In this document: in pieces, positions 38,963 through 48,265 of the stretch
How positions within the stretch are numbered: the stretch's first letter is position 1
How the letters are laid out: each line of letters starts with the position of its first letter
NCBI GenBank assembly: GCA_020846975.1
Contig: JADLCX010000071.1
Span: 1-64,000, forward strand
Reading direction: 5' to 3'
Source: Phycisphaerales bacterium
Lineage (GTDB): Bacteria; Planctomycetota; Phycisphaerae; Phycisphaerales; UBA1924
Length of the DNA stretch: 64,000 nucleotides
The notes under the pieces: model-generated
What the model was told of the DNA's origin: nothing
The model's database searches: none
What the model saw: the letters and a program-made list of their open reading frames with translations, nothing else
Program-made: the position numbers and the translations under genes

Positions 38963-40528
38963 ATGGTGAGCCGGAAGAAGACCAGCAAGAAGGCCGAGCG
39001 GAAATCCAAGCGAGGGGACGGGGGGCTTGATTCGTCCCCCCTCCCCCCCGCGCCCCGCACGCCCGCGCCGCGCGGCGGTCGTCCTTCGGCCCTTATCGAT
39101 ACCCGGGTGATCTACTGCGGTGACAACCTCGAACAGCTCGCCAAGCTGCCGGATGCCTGCATCGACCTGATCTACATTGATCCGCCCTTCAACTCCAACC
39201 GCAACTATGAGGTCTTCTGGGGCGAGACCAAGGAGAAGCGTTCGTTCGAGGACCGGCACGCGAGCACGCAGGCGTACATCGACTACATGCGGCCGCGCTG
39301 CGTCGAGCTGGCTCGCGTGCTCAAGAAGACGGGGAGTTTCTACTACCACTGCGACGATCATGCAAGCCACTACGTCAAGGTGATGCTAGATCAGGTGTTC
39401 GGGCACCAGTTCTTTCAAAACGAGATCGCTTGGAAGCGCACTGGCGCACGCGGCGACGGATTCGCATGGAACCAATTGCACGACACACTCTTTCTATACA
39501 GCCGGTCTGCCGAGTTCACGTTCCACAGGCAGTTTGAGGAGTACGGCGACGAGTATCTGGAGACGAAATACCGCTACGACGACGGTGACGGGCGAAAGTA
39601 CCGCCTTGACAACATGACCAGCCCGAATCCACGGCCGAACATGATGTACGAGTGGAAAGGGCACGCTTCGCCAGAGAAGGGGTGGCGGTACTCCAAGGAA
39701 ACGATGGCCGAACTTGATGCCGACGGGCGTGTCTGGTACCCGAAAGACAAGTCCAAACGGCCGCAGCTGAAAAGGTACCTCGACGAGATGCAGGGCATCC
39801 CGATGGGAAGCGTGTGGACCGACATCGCGCCGATCAACTCTCAGGCCCAGGAGCGACTCGGCTACCCAACCCAGAAGCCTCTGGCTCTGCTCGAACGCAT
39901 CGTGAGCGCGAGCAGCAACCCCAACGACATCGTCCTCGACGCCTTCTGCGGGTGCGGCACCGCGCTCGTCGCCGCCCAGAACCTCGGCCGCCAGTGGATC
40001 GGCATCGACATCTCACCCACCGCCTGCCGCGTCATGGCCAAACGCCTCCGCGATGTCTGCAAGATGCGTGAGAGCGAGCCTGGTCGTCGGGCCGGTGACA
40101 AGAACTCCTTTATTGTCCGCGACCTGCCGTGGACCGTCGAGAAGCTCAAGGCCATCCCTCCCTTCGAGTTCGAGAACTGGGCCGTGATCGCCCTCGGCGG
40201 CATCCCCAACAAGGTCCAGGTCGGCGACATGGGCATCGATGGCCGCATCTTCCCCGTCGGCACCAAGCCCAGCGATGCCCACAGCATGTTCGCGGGCGAC
40301 TGGTTCCCCATCCAGGTCAAGCAGATGGACAAGGTCGGTCGGCCCGACATCGACCAGTTCGAGGCCGTCATGGCCCGCGAGGACCGCCAGCGCGGCTTCT
40401 TCATCGCCTTCGGCTTCTCATCCGATGCCGAGGCCGAGTGCGCCGCGTTCTTCAAGAAAACCAAGCGCGTCATCAAGCTCATCACGGTTCAAGAGATTCT
40501 GGATGAGCAGCACGTGCAGAAGATGTAG
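38963..40528 (+). CDS. DNA methyltransferase fused to Mrr-type nuclease domain
   Basis: 521 aa. A Lys/Arg-rich start is followed by a beta-class amino-methyltransferase: DLIYIDPPFNSNRNY (motif IV) near residue 70, a central target-recognition part, and VLDAFCGCGTALVAAQNLGR (SAM site) near 320. The last 140 residues look like an Mrr-type PD-(D/E)xK nuclease: FENWAVIALGG, VGDMGIDG, WFPIQVKQ, and GFFIAFGFSSDAEAECAAF. The candidate catalytic set is the Asp of GID and the QVK triad. One polypeptide could thus modify and cut DNA. Codons at about 39385-39890 use many A/T-ending forms unlike either flank. A small gene follows, coupled through a stop-overlapping ribosome site. Confidence 0.88.
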   Translation: MVSRKKTSKKAERKSKRGDGGLDSSPLPPAPRTPAPRGGRPSALIDTRVIYCGDNLEQLAKLPDACIDLIYIDPPFNSNRNYEVFWGETKEKRSFEDRHASTQAYIDYMRPRCVELARVLKKTGSFYYHCDDHASHYVKVMLDQVFGHQFFQNEIAWKRTGARGDGFAWNQLHDTLFLYSRSAEFTFHRQFEEYGDEYLETKYRYDDGDGRKYRLDNMTSPNPRPNMMYEWKGHASPEKGWRYSKETMAELDADGRVWYPKDKSKRPQLKRYLDEMQGIPMGSVWTDIAPINSQAQERLGYPTQKPLALLERIVSASSNPNDIVLDAFCGCGTALVAAQNLGRQWIGIDISPTACRVMAKRLRDVCKMRESEPGRRAGDKNSFIVRDLPWTVEKLKAIPPFEFENWAVIALGGIPNKVQVGDMGIDGRIFPVGTKPSDAHSMFAGDWFPIQVKQMDKVGRPDIDQFEAVMAREDRQRGFFIAFGFSSDAEAECAAFFKKTKRVIKLITVQEILDEQHVQKM

Positions 40529-40537: not shown

Positions 40538-40828
40538 ATGATTGCGTTCAGCGCCCAGGTCAGCGGTGACAGGACCGACTATGTGGAGGTCGAGACCGGC
40601 TACGGCGGCAAGCATCGGAAGGTCCGAGTGGTGCCGGGAAACACCTACCGCATCGAGCCGCTCAGCCCGCAGGTTCGCAAGAACCGTGACCGGGTCTGCC
40701 GCGTGACCGGCTTCCGGGAGTTCGGCGCGAAAGGAGACCTGTACGCCAACGTGGTCTGGGAAGACACCGGCCAGAAAGGCTGGAGCCCCATGGACCACTT
40801 CGCCGAGGTCAAGCCCGGCGCGTGCTGA
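40538..40828 (+). CDS. Small protein coupled to the methyltransferase-Mrr gene
   Basis: 96 aa, soluble. The sequence alternates short strands (DYVEVETGYGGKHRKVRVV, RVCRVTGFREF, LYANVVWEDTGQKGWSPMDHF) and looks like an SH3- or Tudor-like beta-barrel. I know no family name. Tight coupling to the restriction-modification fusion suggests a partner role, such as nucleic-acid binding or control, but that is inferred from position only. A hairpin follows 6 bases after the stop. Confidence 0.7.
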   Translation: MIAFSAQVSGDRTDYVEVETGYGGKHRKVRVVPGNTYRIEPLSPQVRKNRDRVCRVTGFREFGAKGDLYANVVWEDTGQKGWSPMDHFAEVKPGAC

Positions 40829-41507: not shown

Positions 41508-42647
41508 TCACTCCAGCCAGTCCTTCGCCTTCAGCCGCGCCGGGACGTACTCCTCGGTGACGAAACTGATCCCCTTGTTGATCATCGCCTCGACTTCCAT
41601 CTTGAACCCGTTGTCGAGCAGGCCCTGGATCTCGCGCTGCCAGCCCTTGTGGTGCTCGAACCACGGGTACGCGGCGATCTCCTTCGCGCGCTTGATGTCG
41701 TTGTCGTTGAGCTTGATCTGCACATCGTCGGTGAAGCCGCAGGCCTTGTAGTCCTTGCTCCGCACGCCGATGAACTTGGCCTCGGGGATCGCCAGCCGGT
41801 TGGACTCGAACGCCAGCGAGATCGAGCCCTGCTTGATGACGCTGAAGATGTAGTGCCCCCAGGGGTCGCAATCCAGCAGGCAGTAGATCGGCAGGCCCAG
41901 CTCGCTGTTGAGCCGCTGGAGCAGCCGGCGCACTCCCCGAGACGGCTGGCCCCCGCCCTCGGTGAGGATGCAGTTGTGCTCCTGCCAGAAGCGGTCCTCG
42001 TTGAACCGGCCCCAGACGGTGTCCTTCTCGACGTGCAGCACGAACCTGGCCTCGCACTTCTTGAACTGGATGACATCGGGCTCGACGATGCTCGGGATGG
42101 CGTAGCCGCCCGAACCCATCCGGCGGCAGTCGATCTCGTCGCCCGAGTCGATGATCGTGATGTTGCCGATCATCGTCCCCTTCTTCTTGGCGAAGATGTG
42201 CAGCTCCTCGCGGAGCGCGCCGAGGCTGACCTCGAGGTCCTCGAGGATACCGTCGGACTCGTCCTGGTCGGTGAAGGTCTTCTCGCTGGTGCCCGCGACG
42301 GTGTGCAGGCCCTTGTAGAACATCCCGCGGAGGCTCAGCGACTTCTCGACCTCGATCAGTTCCTTGATGCCGCGCGCGTGCAGGCAGGTCTGCATGAACT
42401 GCTTGGCCTGGTTCAGGTTGAACAGCTCGCGCTCGGCCGTCGCCGAGCCCATCTCGAGGATGCCGCGCTTGCGGTTCCAGATCGTGTTGCTCCTGGTCCG
42501 CAAGGGGATCTCGACCCTCGGCTCCTTGCCGCCCAGGGCCTTCTTCGCGACATCATCCGCGAGCTCGACGATCCCCCTGAGCGTGCGGGTGTCGCGCTCC
42601 TTGATGCGCCTGGAGACCGAACCGGCGGCGGGCTTGCTCTTGGCCAT
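41508..42647 (-). CDS. top6A: DNA topoisomerase VI subunit A
   Basis: Catalytic, Spo11-related subunit of the type IIB topoisomerase that passes duplex DNA through a double-strand break. 379 aa from the ATG at 42647; a GTG four codons upstream is possible. The winged-helix region carries SLRGMFYKG with the candidate catalytic Tyr at residue 111. The Toprim domain shows ILTEGGGQPSRGVRRLL and LLDCDPWGHYIFS, with Glu and D-x-D metal ligands in place. The C-terminal HHKGWQREIQGLLDNG fits the family. It is in the same leftward run as top6B, separated by an NTF2-like gene. Confidence 0.93.
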   Translation of the reverse strand: MAKSKPAAGSVSRRIKERDTRTLRGIVELADDVAKKALGGKEPRVEIPLRTRSNTIWNRKRGILEMGSATAERELFNLNQAKQFMQTCLHARGIKELIEVEKSLSLRGMFYKGLHTVAGTSEKTFTDQDESDGILEDLEVSLGALREELHIFAKKKGTMIGNITIIDSGDEIDCRRMGSGGYAIPSIVEPDVIQFKKCEARFVLHVEKDTVWGRFNEDRFWQEHNCILTEGGGQPSRGVRRLLQRLNSELGLPIYCLLDCDPWGHYIFSVIKQGSISLAFESNRLAIPEAKFIGVRSKDYKACGFTDDVQIKLNDNDIKRAKEIAAYPWFEHHKGWQREIQGLLDNGFKMEVEAMINKGISFVTEEYVPARLKAKDWLE

Positions 42648-42722
42648 GACTCTGGACACTCCGTGGATGGGAACAAGGGGACGATCGTCGCGGCGGGTCC
42701 GGCCGCGGCGGCCGGCGGGCCT

Positions 42723-43100
42723 TCAACCGTAGTGGGAAACCGAGCGGACGATCCGGCCCGCGCTGTTGAGAAAGAAGACCTCGGCCGCGAGATCGCCGGA
42801 CATGCGCCGGTAGACCAGGATCACGCTCCCGAGGCCGGTGGTCACGTGCAGGGGATCGAAGCGGAGCGTCGGGTTGCGCTCCAGGGCCCGGGCGAAATAG
42901 TCGCGGACACCCGCGATCCCCCCGATCGACGCGTCGTCGGTGCCGTTGTACCGCTTGATGAAGGGCGAGGAGTGCTCGATCGCGGCGTCGTAGTGCGACA
43001 TGATGCCGTCGAGGTCGTGCGCGTTCCACGCGGCGTACCACGAGGCCGCGAAGTCTCGGGCGTGCTCGGGGGTCAGGGGCTGGTTCACGGGCCCGGGCAT
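42723..43100 (-). CDS. NTF2/SnoaL-like protein
   Basis: 125 aa with the cone-shaped NTF2-like pattern: FAASWYAAWNAHDLDGIMSH, YDAAIEHSSPF, IGGIAGVRDYFARALERNP, and a final sheet ILVYRRM, EVFFLNSAGRIVRSVSHYG. Family members are small enzymes or binding proteins with varied roles. The ATG shares a base with the stop of top6B (TGATG), so it is coupled to it, and top6A follows 75 bases later. A link to topoisomerase function is only positional. Confidence 0.8.
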   Translation of the reverse strand: MPGPVNQPLTPEHARDFAASWYAAWNAHDLDGIMSHYDAAIEHSSPFIKRYNGTDDASIGGIAGVRDYFARALERNPTLRFDPLHVTTGLGSVILVYRRMSGDLAAEVFFLNSAGRIVRSVSHYG

Positions 43101-45451
43101 CAGAACAACCTCCCCCCGGCATCATCCAGCGGAACCGGCTTGCCCGTCCTGAGGTCCAGCCGCATCTTGGGCTTGGGCTTTCTCTCGATCGGCGCGGCCG
43201 CGGGCGGGGGCGCGGCGGGGATCGCGGCGGGCTTCTTCGACGCGGCGGGCCTGGCGGGCCTTGGCTTCTCGGGTTTCGACGGCGCGCGGCGGGCCTGCTT
43301 CACATCCATCAGCGTCGGCTCATCGTCATCGGCCTTGGCGCGGGCGGCGACCCTGAGCATCGCGGCCTCGGCCTTGCTCTGGGCGAAGGGATCGGGCTTT
43401 CCGGGCGCACGCTTGCGCGATGGGGAAGCGGGCTCGGCGGCTTGGCGCCCGCCCGCGGGCTCGGCCGTGCCCGCGTTCGGCACACCCACGATGATGACGC
43501 CCTCCTGGTCGGCGGGGTCCTCCTCCTTGACCTTCTTCCCGTCCTCGTCGAGCCGCAGGTCCGCGATCGCCGTCCGCTTCTTCGCCTGCGCCAGGAGCGC
43601 ATCGAACAGCTTCCTGGTGTCCGTGCCGTTGATGGCGTTGACCGCCTTGGAGATCTCCCCGATGTACCGCTCGAACACGTCCCGCCGCTCGGCCTCGCGG
43701 CGCATCTTGAGCCGCTTGCGCATGTACGCGCCGAGCTTCCGCCCGCACTCCATCAGCGCGAGCTTCATCTCCTTGCGGATCTCGTCGTAGTCGGCCACCG
43801 CCTCCTTGCTCTCGCTTGTGAACGGCACCCACACGCTGGCCATGTGGATCATGATGACGATCGGCCCCACCGGCGCGGCCCCGCGCGGCTGCTGCAGGTC
43901 GTAGTTGCGCCAGTTGGTCTCGCCCACGGCCTTGAAACTGCTGCACGCCGACTGCTGGAACAGCAGCGGCACGCGGTTGGCGAACCGGATGACGCGCGAC
44001 GAGTCCTCCGTCGGCAGTTCGCCCCCGAACGCGATCGCCGCCTCGATCAGGAACGGCCGGCCTCGGTACACCGCCGCCTCGCGGCTGCTCGCCGCGTAGA
44101 ACTCCGCCCGCACGCCCTTGAGCAGCCCCGCCAGCAACTGGCGCACACCGATGGGCGCGAGGCAGTCGGTGGGCGGAGGCGGGAGCTTGGATTCCTGCAT
44201 CTCCTTGTACAGCTTCTCTGCGGTCGCGTGGTCCACATCACCCACCTTCGTCCGGCTCGTCAACCCCACCGACTTGCAGAACTCCCCCGCCGTGTTCGCG
44301 CTCACGCGGCTGAACTTGTCCTGCAGGAAGTTGTACAGCGTGTAGCCCTTTTCCTCCTGCTCCGCCTCCTTGAGCATCTGGAGCAGGATCCCCAACTCGA
44401 TCCCCCGCGGGTGCGGCATGATCTCCTTGGTCTCGGGCGGGAGCTCTTCCACCGCGCGAGGGAAGAGGATGATCCCGTTCGTCTCGGTCGTCACCACCGG
44501 CGCGGCCGGAGCAACCACCGCCGGAGCCTCCGCGGCCTCCCCACCCGCCGCGACCTCCCCTTCCTTGGTTCCGCCCTCCGCCCTCCGCTTTCCGCCCTTC
44601 AAGAGCGGCACATCCTCTTCCTCCGCCGCGCTCTCGCGCGATGGGGGCACGAACGTGATCCGCGCGTGCGGGTTGGCGATCGCGGTGAGTTCGAGGAACT
44701 CATCGACGCTGCCGCGGCCCTTCTGGTAGCGGCCCTCGAGCTCGATCGTCACGCTGGTGCCCGTCGGGTAGGCCTTGGGCGAGAGAAACTCACCCTTCTC
44801 CGACATCTCCCGCGTCCCCGCCGTCAGCCCCCGCAGCCGCTGGAGCGGAAAGTCCGGCGTCTCCTCATCCACCGTGACCTCCGCGCGGTTGGTCTTGGTG
44901 TTCATCGCCAGTTCGATGTGGTGGGCCTTCTTGTTGGCATCCGGCCGCGTCTGGATCATCATGGGCTTGCCCGTGGTGATCAGCCCGTACATGCCCGCGG
45001 CCGAAATCCCGATACCCTGCTGCCCGCGCGACATCTTCAGCCGGTGAAACTTCGACCCATAGAGCAGCCGCCCGAAGATGTTCTCGACTTGCTTGCGGAC
45101 GATGCCGGGACCGTTGTCCACGACCGTGATCCGGTACCGCGACTGCTTCACCTCCCGCCCGCGCTCCGGCTGCAAGTCCTCGATCACCACCGTGATGTCC
45201 GGCAGGATCGACGCCTCCTCGCACGCATCCAGCGAGTTGTCCACGGCCTCCTTCACCGTCGTCAGCAGCGCCTTGCGCGGGTTGTCAAACCCCAGGAGGT
45301 GTCGGTTCTTGGCGAAAAACTCGCTCACCGAGATGTCGCGCTGCCGCGAGGCCATCGTCTCGGCCGTGACCTTCTTCTCGCGGCCGGTTCCAGAGGTGCT
45401 TTTCTTGCTCACGTGGGTCGTCGGGGGTTCAAGTTCGGCAACAGCGCTCAT
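43100..45451 (-). CDS. top6B: DNA topoisomerase VI subunit B
   Basis: ATPase subunit of topoisomerase VI. 783 aa. GHKL ATP-binding motifs: VKEAVDNSLDACEEA near 66 (N box), VVDNGPGI near 110, GSKFHRLKMSRGQQGIGIS near 132-150, and a transducer region with the switch lysine expected later. An Ala/Glu/Gly-rich insert (about 265-320) and a Pro/Ala/Lys-rich C-terminal tail of about 120 residues make it longer than archaeal forms (about 530 aa). Topoisomerase VI is archaeal and plant-like; in bacteria it is patchy but known in some planctomycetes. Confidence 0.94.
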   Translation of the reverse strand: MSAVAELEPPTTHVSKKSTSGTGREKKVTAETMASRQRDISVSEFFAKNRHLLGFDNPRKALLTTVKEAVDNSLDACEEASILPDITVVIEDLQPERGREVKQSRYRITVVDNGPGIVRKQVENIFGRLLYGSKFHRLKMSRGQQGIGISAAGMYGLITTGKPMMIQTRPDANKKAHHIELAMNTKTNRAEVTVDEETPDFPLQRLRGLTAGTREMSEKGEFLSPKAYPTGTSVTIELEGRYQKGRGSVDEFLELTAIANPHARITFVPPSRESAAEEEDVPLLKGGKRRAEGGTKEGEVAAGGEAAEAPAVVAPAAPVVTTETNGIILFPRAVEELPPETKEIMPHPRGIELGILLQMLKEAEQEEKGYTLYNFLQDKFSRVSANTAGEFCKSVGLTSRTKVGDVDHATAEKLYKEMQESKLPPPPTDCLAPIGVRQLLAGLLKGVRAEFYAASSREAAVYRGRPFLIEAAIAFGGELPTEDSSRVIRFANRVPLLFQQSACSSFKAVGETNWRNYDLQQPRGAAPVGPIVIMIHMASVWVPFTSESKEAVADYDEIRKEMKLALMECGRKLGAYMRKRLKMRREAERRDVFERYIGEISKAVNAINGTDTRKLFDALLAQAKKRTAIADLRLDEDGKKVKEEDPADQEGVIIVGVPNAGTAEPAGGRQAAEPASPSRKRAPGKPDPFAQSKAEAAMLRVAARAKADDDEPTLMDVKQARRAPSKPEKPRPARPAASKKPAAIPAAPPPAAAPIERKPKPKMRLDLRTGKPVPLDDAGGRLF

Positions 45452-46745: not shown

Positions 46746-47270
46746 CTACTCGTCATCCTTCGCCGCGTCGAGCACCTTCTCCTCGACGTAGATCGGCACG
46801 TTGCTCGCGATCCCCAGCGCGATCGCGTCGCTCGGGCGAGAGTCGATTTTCACCAGTTTCCCGTGCGAATCGCGCACGTTCAGGATCGCGTAGAACGTGT
46901 GGTCGCGCAGGTCGCTGATGGTGATCGATTCGAGCTTGCCGCCGAGGGCCTCGATCGCGTTGGTCAGCAGGTCGTGGGTCTGCGGGCGCTTGATCGGGAT
47001 CCCCTTCAGCCGGCGCTCGATCGCCTGCGCCTCGGGCAGGCCGATGACGATCGGGAAGGCGCGGCCGTTCTCGACCTGGCTGTAGGTCATGGCCGAGTGG
47101 CCGCTGCCCCCCCCCGCCGCGCCCCCCCCGCTCGCCCCTCCCCCCGCGCTCGAGCCGCCGGCGGGCGCATCATCACCATCGGAGGTGGGCACCACCTCGC
47201 GGAGTTCGATGATCTGGTAGTCGTTGAGCTCGCGGATCAGGATCCGCGCCAGCTCCATGCGTACCGCCAT
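46746..47270 (-). CDS. Bifunctional nuclease (BFN, DUF151)
   Basis: 174 aa from the ATG at 47270 (MAVRMELARILIREL). The BFN domain covers about 60-165: RAFPIVIGLPEAQAIERRLK, HDLLTNAIEALGGKLESITI, FYAILNVRDSHGKLVKIDSR, and PSDAIALGIASNVPIYV. Members degrade both DNA and RNA in vitro. A Gly/Ser/Ala-rich insert (about 34-58) breaks the N-terminal strand. The open frame upstream to 47492 is Arg/Pro-rich and excluded. A 116-base gap separates it from nnrE, which is on the same strand. Confidence 0.9.
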   Translation of the reverse strand: MAVRMELARILIRELNDYQIIELREVVPTSDGDDAPAGGSSAGGGASGGGAAGGGSGHSAMTYSQVENGRAFPIVIGLPEAQAIERRLKGIPIKRPQTHDLLTNAIEALGGKLESITISDLRDHTFYAILNVRDSHGKLVKIDSRPSDAIALGIASNVPIYVEEKVLDAAKDDE

Positions 47271-47386
47271 GTCCGTGTCTCCGTCACCAGACTCTTCGCC
47301 CGTTTTCCGATCCGGTTGCCGCATCCGCCGCCGGGCGCTCCGTGCCGCATTGTTAGGCGGGCCGATGCGACGGATCGACCGGCGCA

Positions 47387-48265
47387 TCACTGCGGCCGGG
47401 CTTCGTCCGTCATCGGCTCGCCCTCGACATCCATCGGGCGGCCCAGGCGCTCGATCAGGGCGCGGGGCGCGCCGATCCCCGCGACCAAACAATCGCCCAA
47501 GAATGGCTGCGCGGCAAGGGTCAGGTAACCGGTCTTCAAGCCCAGCAGCGCGACGGTGACATCGGCCCGGACCGCCTCGCCCCCGACGAAAGGTGACCCG
47601 GTCGCGGCGTCGAGTCCACTCGGGACATCGACGGCGAGAATGGGCACCTGCTCGGCCCGGTAGGCATTGACCAGTTTGATCAGTTCGCCCATCTCTCCAG
47701 CCGCCGGGCGGTCAAGCCCGGTCCCGAGGAGGGCGTCGATGACCAGATCGGGATCGCCGAGATCGGCGCGTGCGAGGCGTGCGGCCTCTCGCGGCGACCC
47801 GCCGGTAACATGGATGGGGATACCCATCCGCCGAGCGACATCGAGATTGACGCGGGCATCGCCCGTGTACCTCTCGGGCGACGCGGGAGTGACGATCGAG
47901 ACGGCCGAGCCGTCGTTGGCGAGGTGGCGTGCGGCCGCGAAGCCGTCGCCGCCGTTGTTGCCCGGCCCGCAGAAGACGAGAATGCACGGGTCCTCGACGC
48001 CGGTGAGCAGATCGCGGGCGACGCTGGCGATGCCGAGGGCGGCGTTCTCCATGAGGAGGATGGATGGGATACCGAACTCCTCGACGCAGAGGCGATCGAC
48101 CTCGCGCGATTGGGCCGGCGTGAAGACGTAGAGCGGATCGACAGGAGAATCGTCGGCGTCCCGGGCGGGCGGATCGCGGCGCGGCGATCGACGGGCGGAA
48201 TCGCGTCCGTTTCCGCCGCCTCCACCACGGCGGTGCCTGCGCCCGGTATCCTCTGGCCGATGCAT
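47387..48265 (-). CDS. nnrE: NAD(P)H-hydrate epimerase
   Basis: Repairs hydrated NAD(P)H by interconverting the R and S epimers. 292 aa. YjeF N-terminal domain signatures: VFTPAQSREVDRL near 47, SILLMENAALGIAS near 68, VFCGPGNNGGDGFAAARHL near 97, DLVIDALLGTGL near 165, and AVDVPSGLDAATG near 205. The N-terminal 40 residues are Arg/Asp-rich and probably not conserved; there is no other start before VDPLYVF. The dehydratase half (NnrD), fused in many bacteria, is absent. Confidence 0.9.
   Translation of the reverse strand: MHRPEDTGRRHRRGGGGGNGRDSARRSPRRDPPARDADDSPVDPLYVFTPAQSREVDRLCVEEFGIPSILLMENAALGIASVARDLLTGVEDPCILVFCGPGNNGGDGFAAARHLANDGSAVSIVTPASPERYTGDARVNLDVARRMGIPIHVTGGSPREAARLARADLGDPDLVIDALLGTGLDRPAAGEMGELIKLVNAYRAEQVPILAVDVPSGLDAATGSPFVGGEAVRADVTVALLGLKTGYLTLAAQPFLGDCLVAGIGAPRALIERLGRPMDVEGEPMTDEARPQ

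What the first reader, a model, noticed from the sequence alone, without database searches (positions are those of the whole stretch)
38963..40528. Methyltransferase and Mrr-type nuclease in one chain
An amino-methyltransferase of beta class is followed by an Mrr-like PD-(D/E)xK domain (GDMGIDG, QVK, GFFIAFGFSSDAEAE). It could be a one-gene restriction-modification system, or an Mrr part that acts on foreign modification. No separate restriction subunit is near.
Basis: partly seen in the sequence, partly recalled or inferred. Interest (0 to 1): 0.75.

Follow-up and report, generated by a model that had tools for sequence, protein, structure and literature searches.

The report
One-gene restriction-modification enzyme, swappable recognition domain
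This bacterial gene joins a DNA-marking enzyme and an Mrr-type DNA-cutting enzyme in one protein, and its relatives keep both enzymes while freely exchanging the middle part that should read the DNA sequence, so it is most likely a complete one-gene defence system that databases list only as a DNA methyltransferase.

Summary
ORF 38963-40528 (+, 521 aa) has a beta-class amino-methyltransferase (Pfam N6_N4_Mtase 67-358) followed by an Mrr-type nuclease domain (Mrr_cat 419-513, above Pfam's cut-off). The C-terminal domain, modelled alone, matches solved PD-(D/E)xK nucleases (AspBHI, MspJI, FokI, Type ISP LlaBIII; Z 9-11). A genome scan found 310 related loci; all 82 distinct members read keep D426, Q451 and K453. 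No neighbouring gene is conserved. The new finding lies in the middle: residues 156-290, the expected target recognition domain (TRD), behave as a swappable cassette. TRD identity is uncorrelated with core identity (rho -0.04); copies from one bin share about 90% core DNA but have unrelated TRDs; the nuclease stays under purifying selection. Swapping is safe only if one TRD steers both activities, which favours a single-chain restriction-modification enzyme over a modification-dependent one. It works like a Type IIC enzyme, but the combination of an N-terminal beta-class methyltransferase with a C-terminal Mrr PD-QxK nuclease was not found in the literature held (REBASE could not be searched). 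Distant homologues in phages and plasmids are annotated only as methyltransferases. Methylation and cutting remain untested.

The parts
38963..40528 (+). whole gene, 521 aa, beta-class amino-methyltransferase plus Mrr-type nuclease
39161..40036 (+). methyltransferase domain (Pfam N6_N4_Mtase, residues 67-358), with the TRD inside it
   Evidence: E 3.9e-47; structure matches CcrM, M.BceJIV, M.RsrI at Z about 26
39179..39190 (+). DPPF catalytic motif IV (residues 73-76)
   Evidence: invariant in 67 sequences
39428..39832 (+). variable target recognition domain (TRD), residues 156-290, exchanged as a cassette in the family
   Evidence: mean pairwise identity 0.37 against 0.85, 0.87 and 0.68 for the other domains; swaps at DNA level
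39938..39961 (+). DAFCGCGT, AdoMet-binding motif I (residues 326-333), after the TRD as in the beta class
   Evidence: D326 and C329-T333 invariant
40115..40525 (+). C-terminal Mrr-type PD-(D/E)xK nuclease domain, residues 385-521
   Evidence: Pfam Mrr_cat 419-513; model of the domain alone matches PD-(D/E)xK nucleases at Z 9-11
40163..40180 (+). FEFENW (residues 401-406), first helix of the nuclease; the acids are Q in much of the distant phage-type branch
40226..40243 (+). DMGIDG (residues 422-427) with the predicted catalytic D426
   Evidence: D422, G424, D426, G427 invariant in 67 sequences
40313..40321 (+). QVK (residues 451-453), the Q-x-K half of the PD-QxK site
   Evidence: V452 and K453 invariant, Q451 at least 90%

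Best explanation
A self-contained restriction-modification enzyme in one chain that works like a Type IIC enzyme. The TRD inside the beta-class methyltransferase reads a specific DNA sequence. On host DNA the methyltransferase keeps that site methylated (probably N6-methyladenine). On unmethylated foreign DNA the C-terminal Mrr-type nuclease, which has no specificity of its own, cuts at or near the same site, probably by pairing with the nuclease of a second molecule. Because one TRD steers both activities, exchanging the TRD changes both at once and gives a new working system. Shown: domains, conserved catalytic residues, fold, TRD exchange, standing alone, purifying selection on the nuclease. 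Inferred: which base is methylated, that it cuts, that it cuts unmethylated DNA, and where.
For: Both domains found and kept in all 82 close members read. The nuclease model resembles the Mrr-type domains of AspBHI and MspJI, FokI and the Type ISP enzyme LlaBIII. TRD region identity 0.37 against 0.85, 0.87 and 0.68. Pairs with core DNA identity mostly 0.85-1.0 have TRD identity 0.3-0.55; in such pairs TRD synonymous sites are saturated or nearly so, and in L037/L044 the reverse holds, TRD dS 0.026 against 0.22-0.45 in the flanks. TRD types scatter over the core tree almost at random (14 changes of a possible 17, 12 of 14, 7 of 7) and TRD identity is uncorrelated with core identity (rho -0.04). 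Nuclease dN/dS 0.01-0.26 in six pairs. No conserved neighbour in over 80 loci. This is the only Mrr_cat in the genome. Patchy presence (8 of 41 genomes) and decayed copies, as is usual for restriction-modification genes.
Against: No activity data. One nuclease site per chain requires pairing or two cuts, which was not tested. AdoMet dependence, target sequence and cut position are unknown. Foldseek matches of the nuclease domain are weak (best E 0.0012), although the second aligner ranks nucleases first. The gene is not in a defence island here. Copies said to share a genome come from metagenome bins.
Confidence: 0.72

Rival explanations
1. Modification-dependent (Type IV-like) enzyme: the Mrr domain cuts DNA that carries foreign modification, while the methyltransferase has a separate role.
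For: Among the best fold matches of the C-terminal domain are the nuclease domains of the modification-dependent enzymes AspBHI and MspJI; a weak PADLOC match of the domain alone is to a Type IV model (E 0.019).
Against: No SRA, PUA or Mrr_N reader in Pfam scans. Mrr-type PD-QxK nucleases also serve cutters of unmethylated sites such as Type ISP enzymes (PMC3874165). With freely exchanged TRDs each swap would put methylation at new sites, hard to tolerate if the nuclease cut methylated DNA.
Confidence: 0.1
2. A solitary, epigenetic or protective methyltransferase whose nuclease domain no longer cuts and serves DNA binding or regulation.
For: Databases annotate homologues only as methyltransferases; distant homologues sit in phages, where solitary methyltransferases are common; some distant nuclease domains also match a Pfam family named for inactive nucleases.
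Against: D426 and K453 are invariant in 67 sequences down to 38% identity, and the nuclease evolves under purifying selection, dN/dS as low as 0.01. An inactive domain would not be expected to keep its catalytic residues.
Confidence: 0.13
3. The methyltransferase of a Type III-like or multi-subunit system whose partner is elsewhere in the genome.
For: The methyltransferase part resembles Type III Mod subunits such as that of EcoP15I.
Against: It carries its own nuclease, has no conserved neighbour, and no helicase/Res gene lies beside it.
Confidence: 0.05

Closest known systems
Type IIC/IIG single-chain restriction-modification enzymes (MmeI, BpuSI, Eco57I)
   Same: Endonuclease and methyltransferase in one chain, both using one specificity module.
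   Different: Those have an N-terminal PD-(D/E)xK domain and a gamma-class methyltransferase with a C-terminal or separate specificity module (PMC4081073, PMC3874165); here a beta-class methyltransferase with an internal TRD comes first and an Mrr-type nuclease last.
BtgZI
   Same: N-terminal methyltransferase and C-terminal nuclease domain with Q in place of E (PMC4081073).
   Different: Alpha-class methyltransferase; its sequence was not compared here.
Type ISP enzymes (LlaGI, LlaBIII)
   Same: Mrr-like PD-QxK nuclease in a single-chain restriction-modification enzyme (PMC3874165); fold match Z 9.3.
   Different: Nuclease at the N-terminus, a DNA translocase domain and a gamma-class methyltransferase; none of these here.
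MspJI and AspBHI, modification-dependent nucleases
   Same: C-terminal Mrr-like nuclease domain, among the best fold matches; PD-QxK in MspJI (PMC12707154).
   Different: They carry a reader of modified cytosine (SRA-like) and no methyltransferase.
Type III Mod subunit (EcoP15I)
   Same: Beta-class adenine methyltransferase with an internal TRD.
   Different: Needs a separate Res helicase-nuclease subunit; Mod has no nuclease.

Membership tests
Type IIC (combined R and M in one protein) | endonuclease and methyltransferase domains in one chain | tested here: met
Type IIC (combined R and M in one protein) | both activities demonstrated, on the same recognition sequence | not testable with these tools
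   needs biochemistry; cassette exchange of the single TRD supports a shared specificity
Type IIG in the narrow sense | gamma-class methyltransferase with N-terminal nuclease | tested here: not met
   motif IV precedes motif I with an internal TRD (beta class) and the nuclease is C-terminal
Type IIG in the narrow sense | cleavage stimulated by or dependent on AdoMet | not testable with these tools
   no biochemistry
Type ISP | translocase (helicase) domain between nuclease and methyltransferase | tested here: not met
   521 aa, no helicase domain in the Pfam scan
Type IV, Mrr family | Mrr-type catalytic domain (PD-QxK) | tested here: met
   Pfam Mrr_cat above cut-off, fold, motif conservation
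Type IV, Mrr family | domain that reads modified bases (Mrr_N winged helix, SRA, PUA) | tested here: not met
   no such Pfam hit in the protein or among families listed for 67 members
Beta-class amino-methyltransferase | order motif IV (DPPF), TRD, motif I | tested here: met
   structure Z about 26 to CcrM, M.RsrI, M.BceJIV

The most novel reading that the evidence does not exclude
A widespread, so far unrecognised subclass of single-chain restriction-modification enzymes (beta-class methyltransferase plus C-terminal Mrr nuclease) whose recognition domain moves as a cassette between paralogues and across phyla, so that a bacterium, plasmid or phage can gain a new matched pair of cutting and protecting specificities in one recombination step.
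Probability: 0.5. Interest if true: 0.65.

Novelty: new variant of a known kind. Interest (0 to 1): 0.55.

Why it matters
If true, hundreds of genes in Planctomycetota, Acidobacteriota, Verrucomicrobiota and others, and distant ones in phages and plasmids, that are annotated as plain DNA methyltransferases are complete restriction-modification systems. The natural set of shuffled TRDs on an almost constant frame would make the link between TRD sequence and DNA motif directly testable and is a natural source of enzymes with new specificities. Surveys of bacterial defence would need correcting.

Tried and rejected
Conserved partner gene: none; the 96-aa ORF just downstream (40538-40828) has no homologue in any other fetched locus and no Pfam hit, so it is not taken as a partner. 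Profile of the nuclease domain against the sequences of solved structures: one chance hit only. The full-length model finds only methyltransferases, so the C-terminal domain was folded alone. Foldseek ranks eukaryotic RNA polymerase subunit Rpb5 first for it, partly similar to such nucleases (own knowledge); VIA-align ranks nucleases above it. NCBIfam has no hit for the nuclease part, and PADLOC names the chain a methyltransferase only. Literature searches for a beta-class methyltransferase-Mrr fusion found none in the held library; REBASE could not be searched. Whole-gene horizontal transfer as the reason for the wide spread: the core tree follows phyla fairly well (9 changes, least possible 5), so mobility is clear for the TRD, less so for the whole gene. 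Promoter scan: nothing.

Full report
What is there. ORF 38963-40528 on the + strand encodes 521 aa. Pfam finds N6_N4_Mtase at 67-358 (E 3.9e-47) and Mrr_cat at 419-513 (27.7 bits against a cut-off of 21). DPPF (73-76) lies before DAFCGCGT (326-333) with a long region between, which is the beta class. The best structural matches of the methyltransferase part are the adenine methyltransferases CcrM, M.BceJIV, M.RsrI and MboIIA (Z about 26) and Type III Mod of EcoP15I (Z 23); N6-methyladenine is therefore expected, not shown.

The C-terminal domain. Folded alone with 67 relatives it gave a fair model (mean pLDDT 80). VIA-align ranks AF1548, AspBHI, MspJI, FokI, Nt.BspD6I, EcoT38I and Type ISP LlaBIII first (Z 10.8 to 9.3); all but AF1548, whose title says unknown function, are restriction or nicking enzymes. 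D422, G424, D426, G427, V452 and K453 are invariant in 67 sequences down to 38% identity and Q451 is nearly so. This is the PD-QxK form of the site, as described for Mrr, MspJI and Type ISP enzymes (PMC12707154, PMC3874165).

The family. A scan of one genome for each of 84,980 species found 310 loci that encode relatives; the best 80 were kept, at 58-91% identity. Record titles name mostly Planctomycetota, Acidobacteriota and Verrucomicrobiota. All 82 distinct members read have both domains. Presence is patchy: 8 of 41 genomes among own and relatives have a full-length copy, and in 392 genomes of the phylum the nuclease domain is matched in 14, few of them full length. Several copies are broken. 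None of the window's neighbours tested recurs in other loci, not even beside the 91% identical L033, and no gene family recurs beside the enzyme in more than five loci. The gene thus stands alone.

The recognition cassette. Mean pairwise identity is 0.85 (45-155), 0.37 (156-290), 0.87 (296-366) and 0.68 (nuclease, 385-521). This is not mere relaxed constraint, because DNA shows it too. In L047/L070, L049/L078, L051/L088 and L042/L052, identity falls from about 0.8-1.0 to 0.3-0.55 in the middle and rises again; synonymous sites are saturated or nearly so in the TRD but at dS 0.16-1.7 in the other parts. The first two pairs each come from one bin. The reverse occurs in L037/L044: TRD dS 0.026, other parts 0.22-0.45. 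On a tree of the core without the TRD, the four largest TRD types need 14 of a possible 17, 12 of 14, 7 of 7 and 4 of 4 changes, close to shuffled labels, whereas phylum labels cluster strongly. Spearman rho of core and TRD identity is -0.04; of 306 pairs with methyltransferase core identity of at least 0.90, 171 have TRD identity under 0.35.

Mechanism. Where nuclease and methyltransferase each have a specificity of their own, changing the TRD of one alone would leave cut sites unprotected. [quoted passage not shown] No reader domain was found for the nuclease. So I infer: the TRD binds the site; host sites are methylated; unmethylated sites are cut, with pairing of two nuclease domains as presumed for Type IIC enzymes (PMC4081073). 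Cutting, its dependence on methylation, and the target remain to be shown.

Comparison. Most Type IIC enzymes have an N-terminal nuclease and a gamma-class methyltransferase; BtgZI has an alpha-class methyltransferase followed by a nuclease with Q in place of E (PMC4081073). Type ISP enzymes have an Mrr-like nuclease, a translocase and a gamma-class methyltransferase (PMC3874165). A beta-class methyltransferase followed by an Mrr nuclease was not found in the held literature, but REBASE was not available and may hold predicted entries. Hence: a new variant of a known kind.

Phages and plasmids. Distant homologues (about 30-45% identity) with Mrr_cat occur in mycobacteriophage Dori gp42, rhizobial plasmid pMLa and a Microbacterium plasmid, and in viral contigs; the annotated ones are called methyltransferase only.

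Noticed in passing
window 41508-45451 (-): Topoisomerase VI subunits A and B, an enzyme typical of archaea, side by side in a planctomycete-like genome, with a SnoaL-like ORF (42723-43100) between them.
   Followed up: no
L143:2983-4620 (Mycobacterium phage Dori gp42): A phage gene called DNA methyltransferase, just after the lysis genes and near the integrase, has the same methyltransferase plus Mrr_cat architecture; a phage with its own one-gene restriction-modification enzyme would be unusual.
   Followed up: partly
window 39194-39259 (residues 78-99): The stretch after DPPF (SNRNYEVFWGETKEKRSFEDRH) is among the most conserved in the family yet has the lowest confidence of the folded part of the model, possibly a loop that orders only on DNA.
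   Followed up: no
L146, L147, L148, L149, L150: Broken remnants of the gene in other genomes, with both halves or only the nuclease end left.
   Followed up: partly
window 46746-47492 (-): Protein with a bifunctional nuclease domain (BFN_dom).
   Followed up: no
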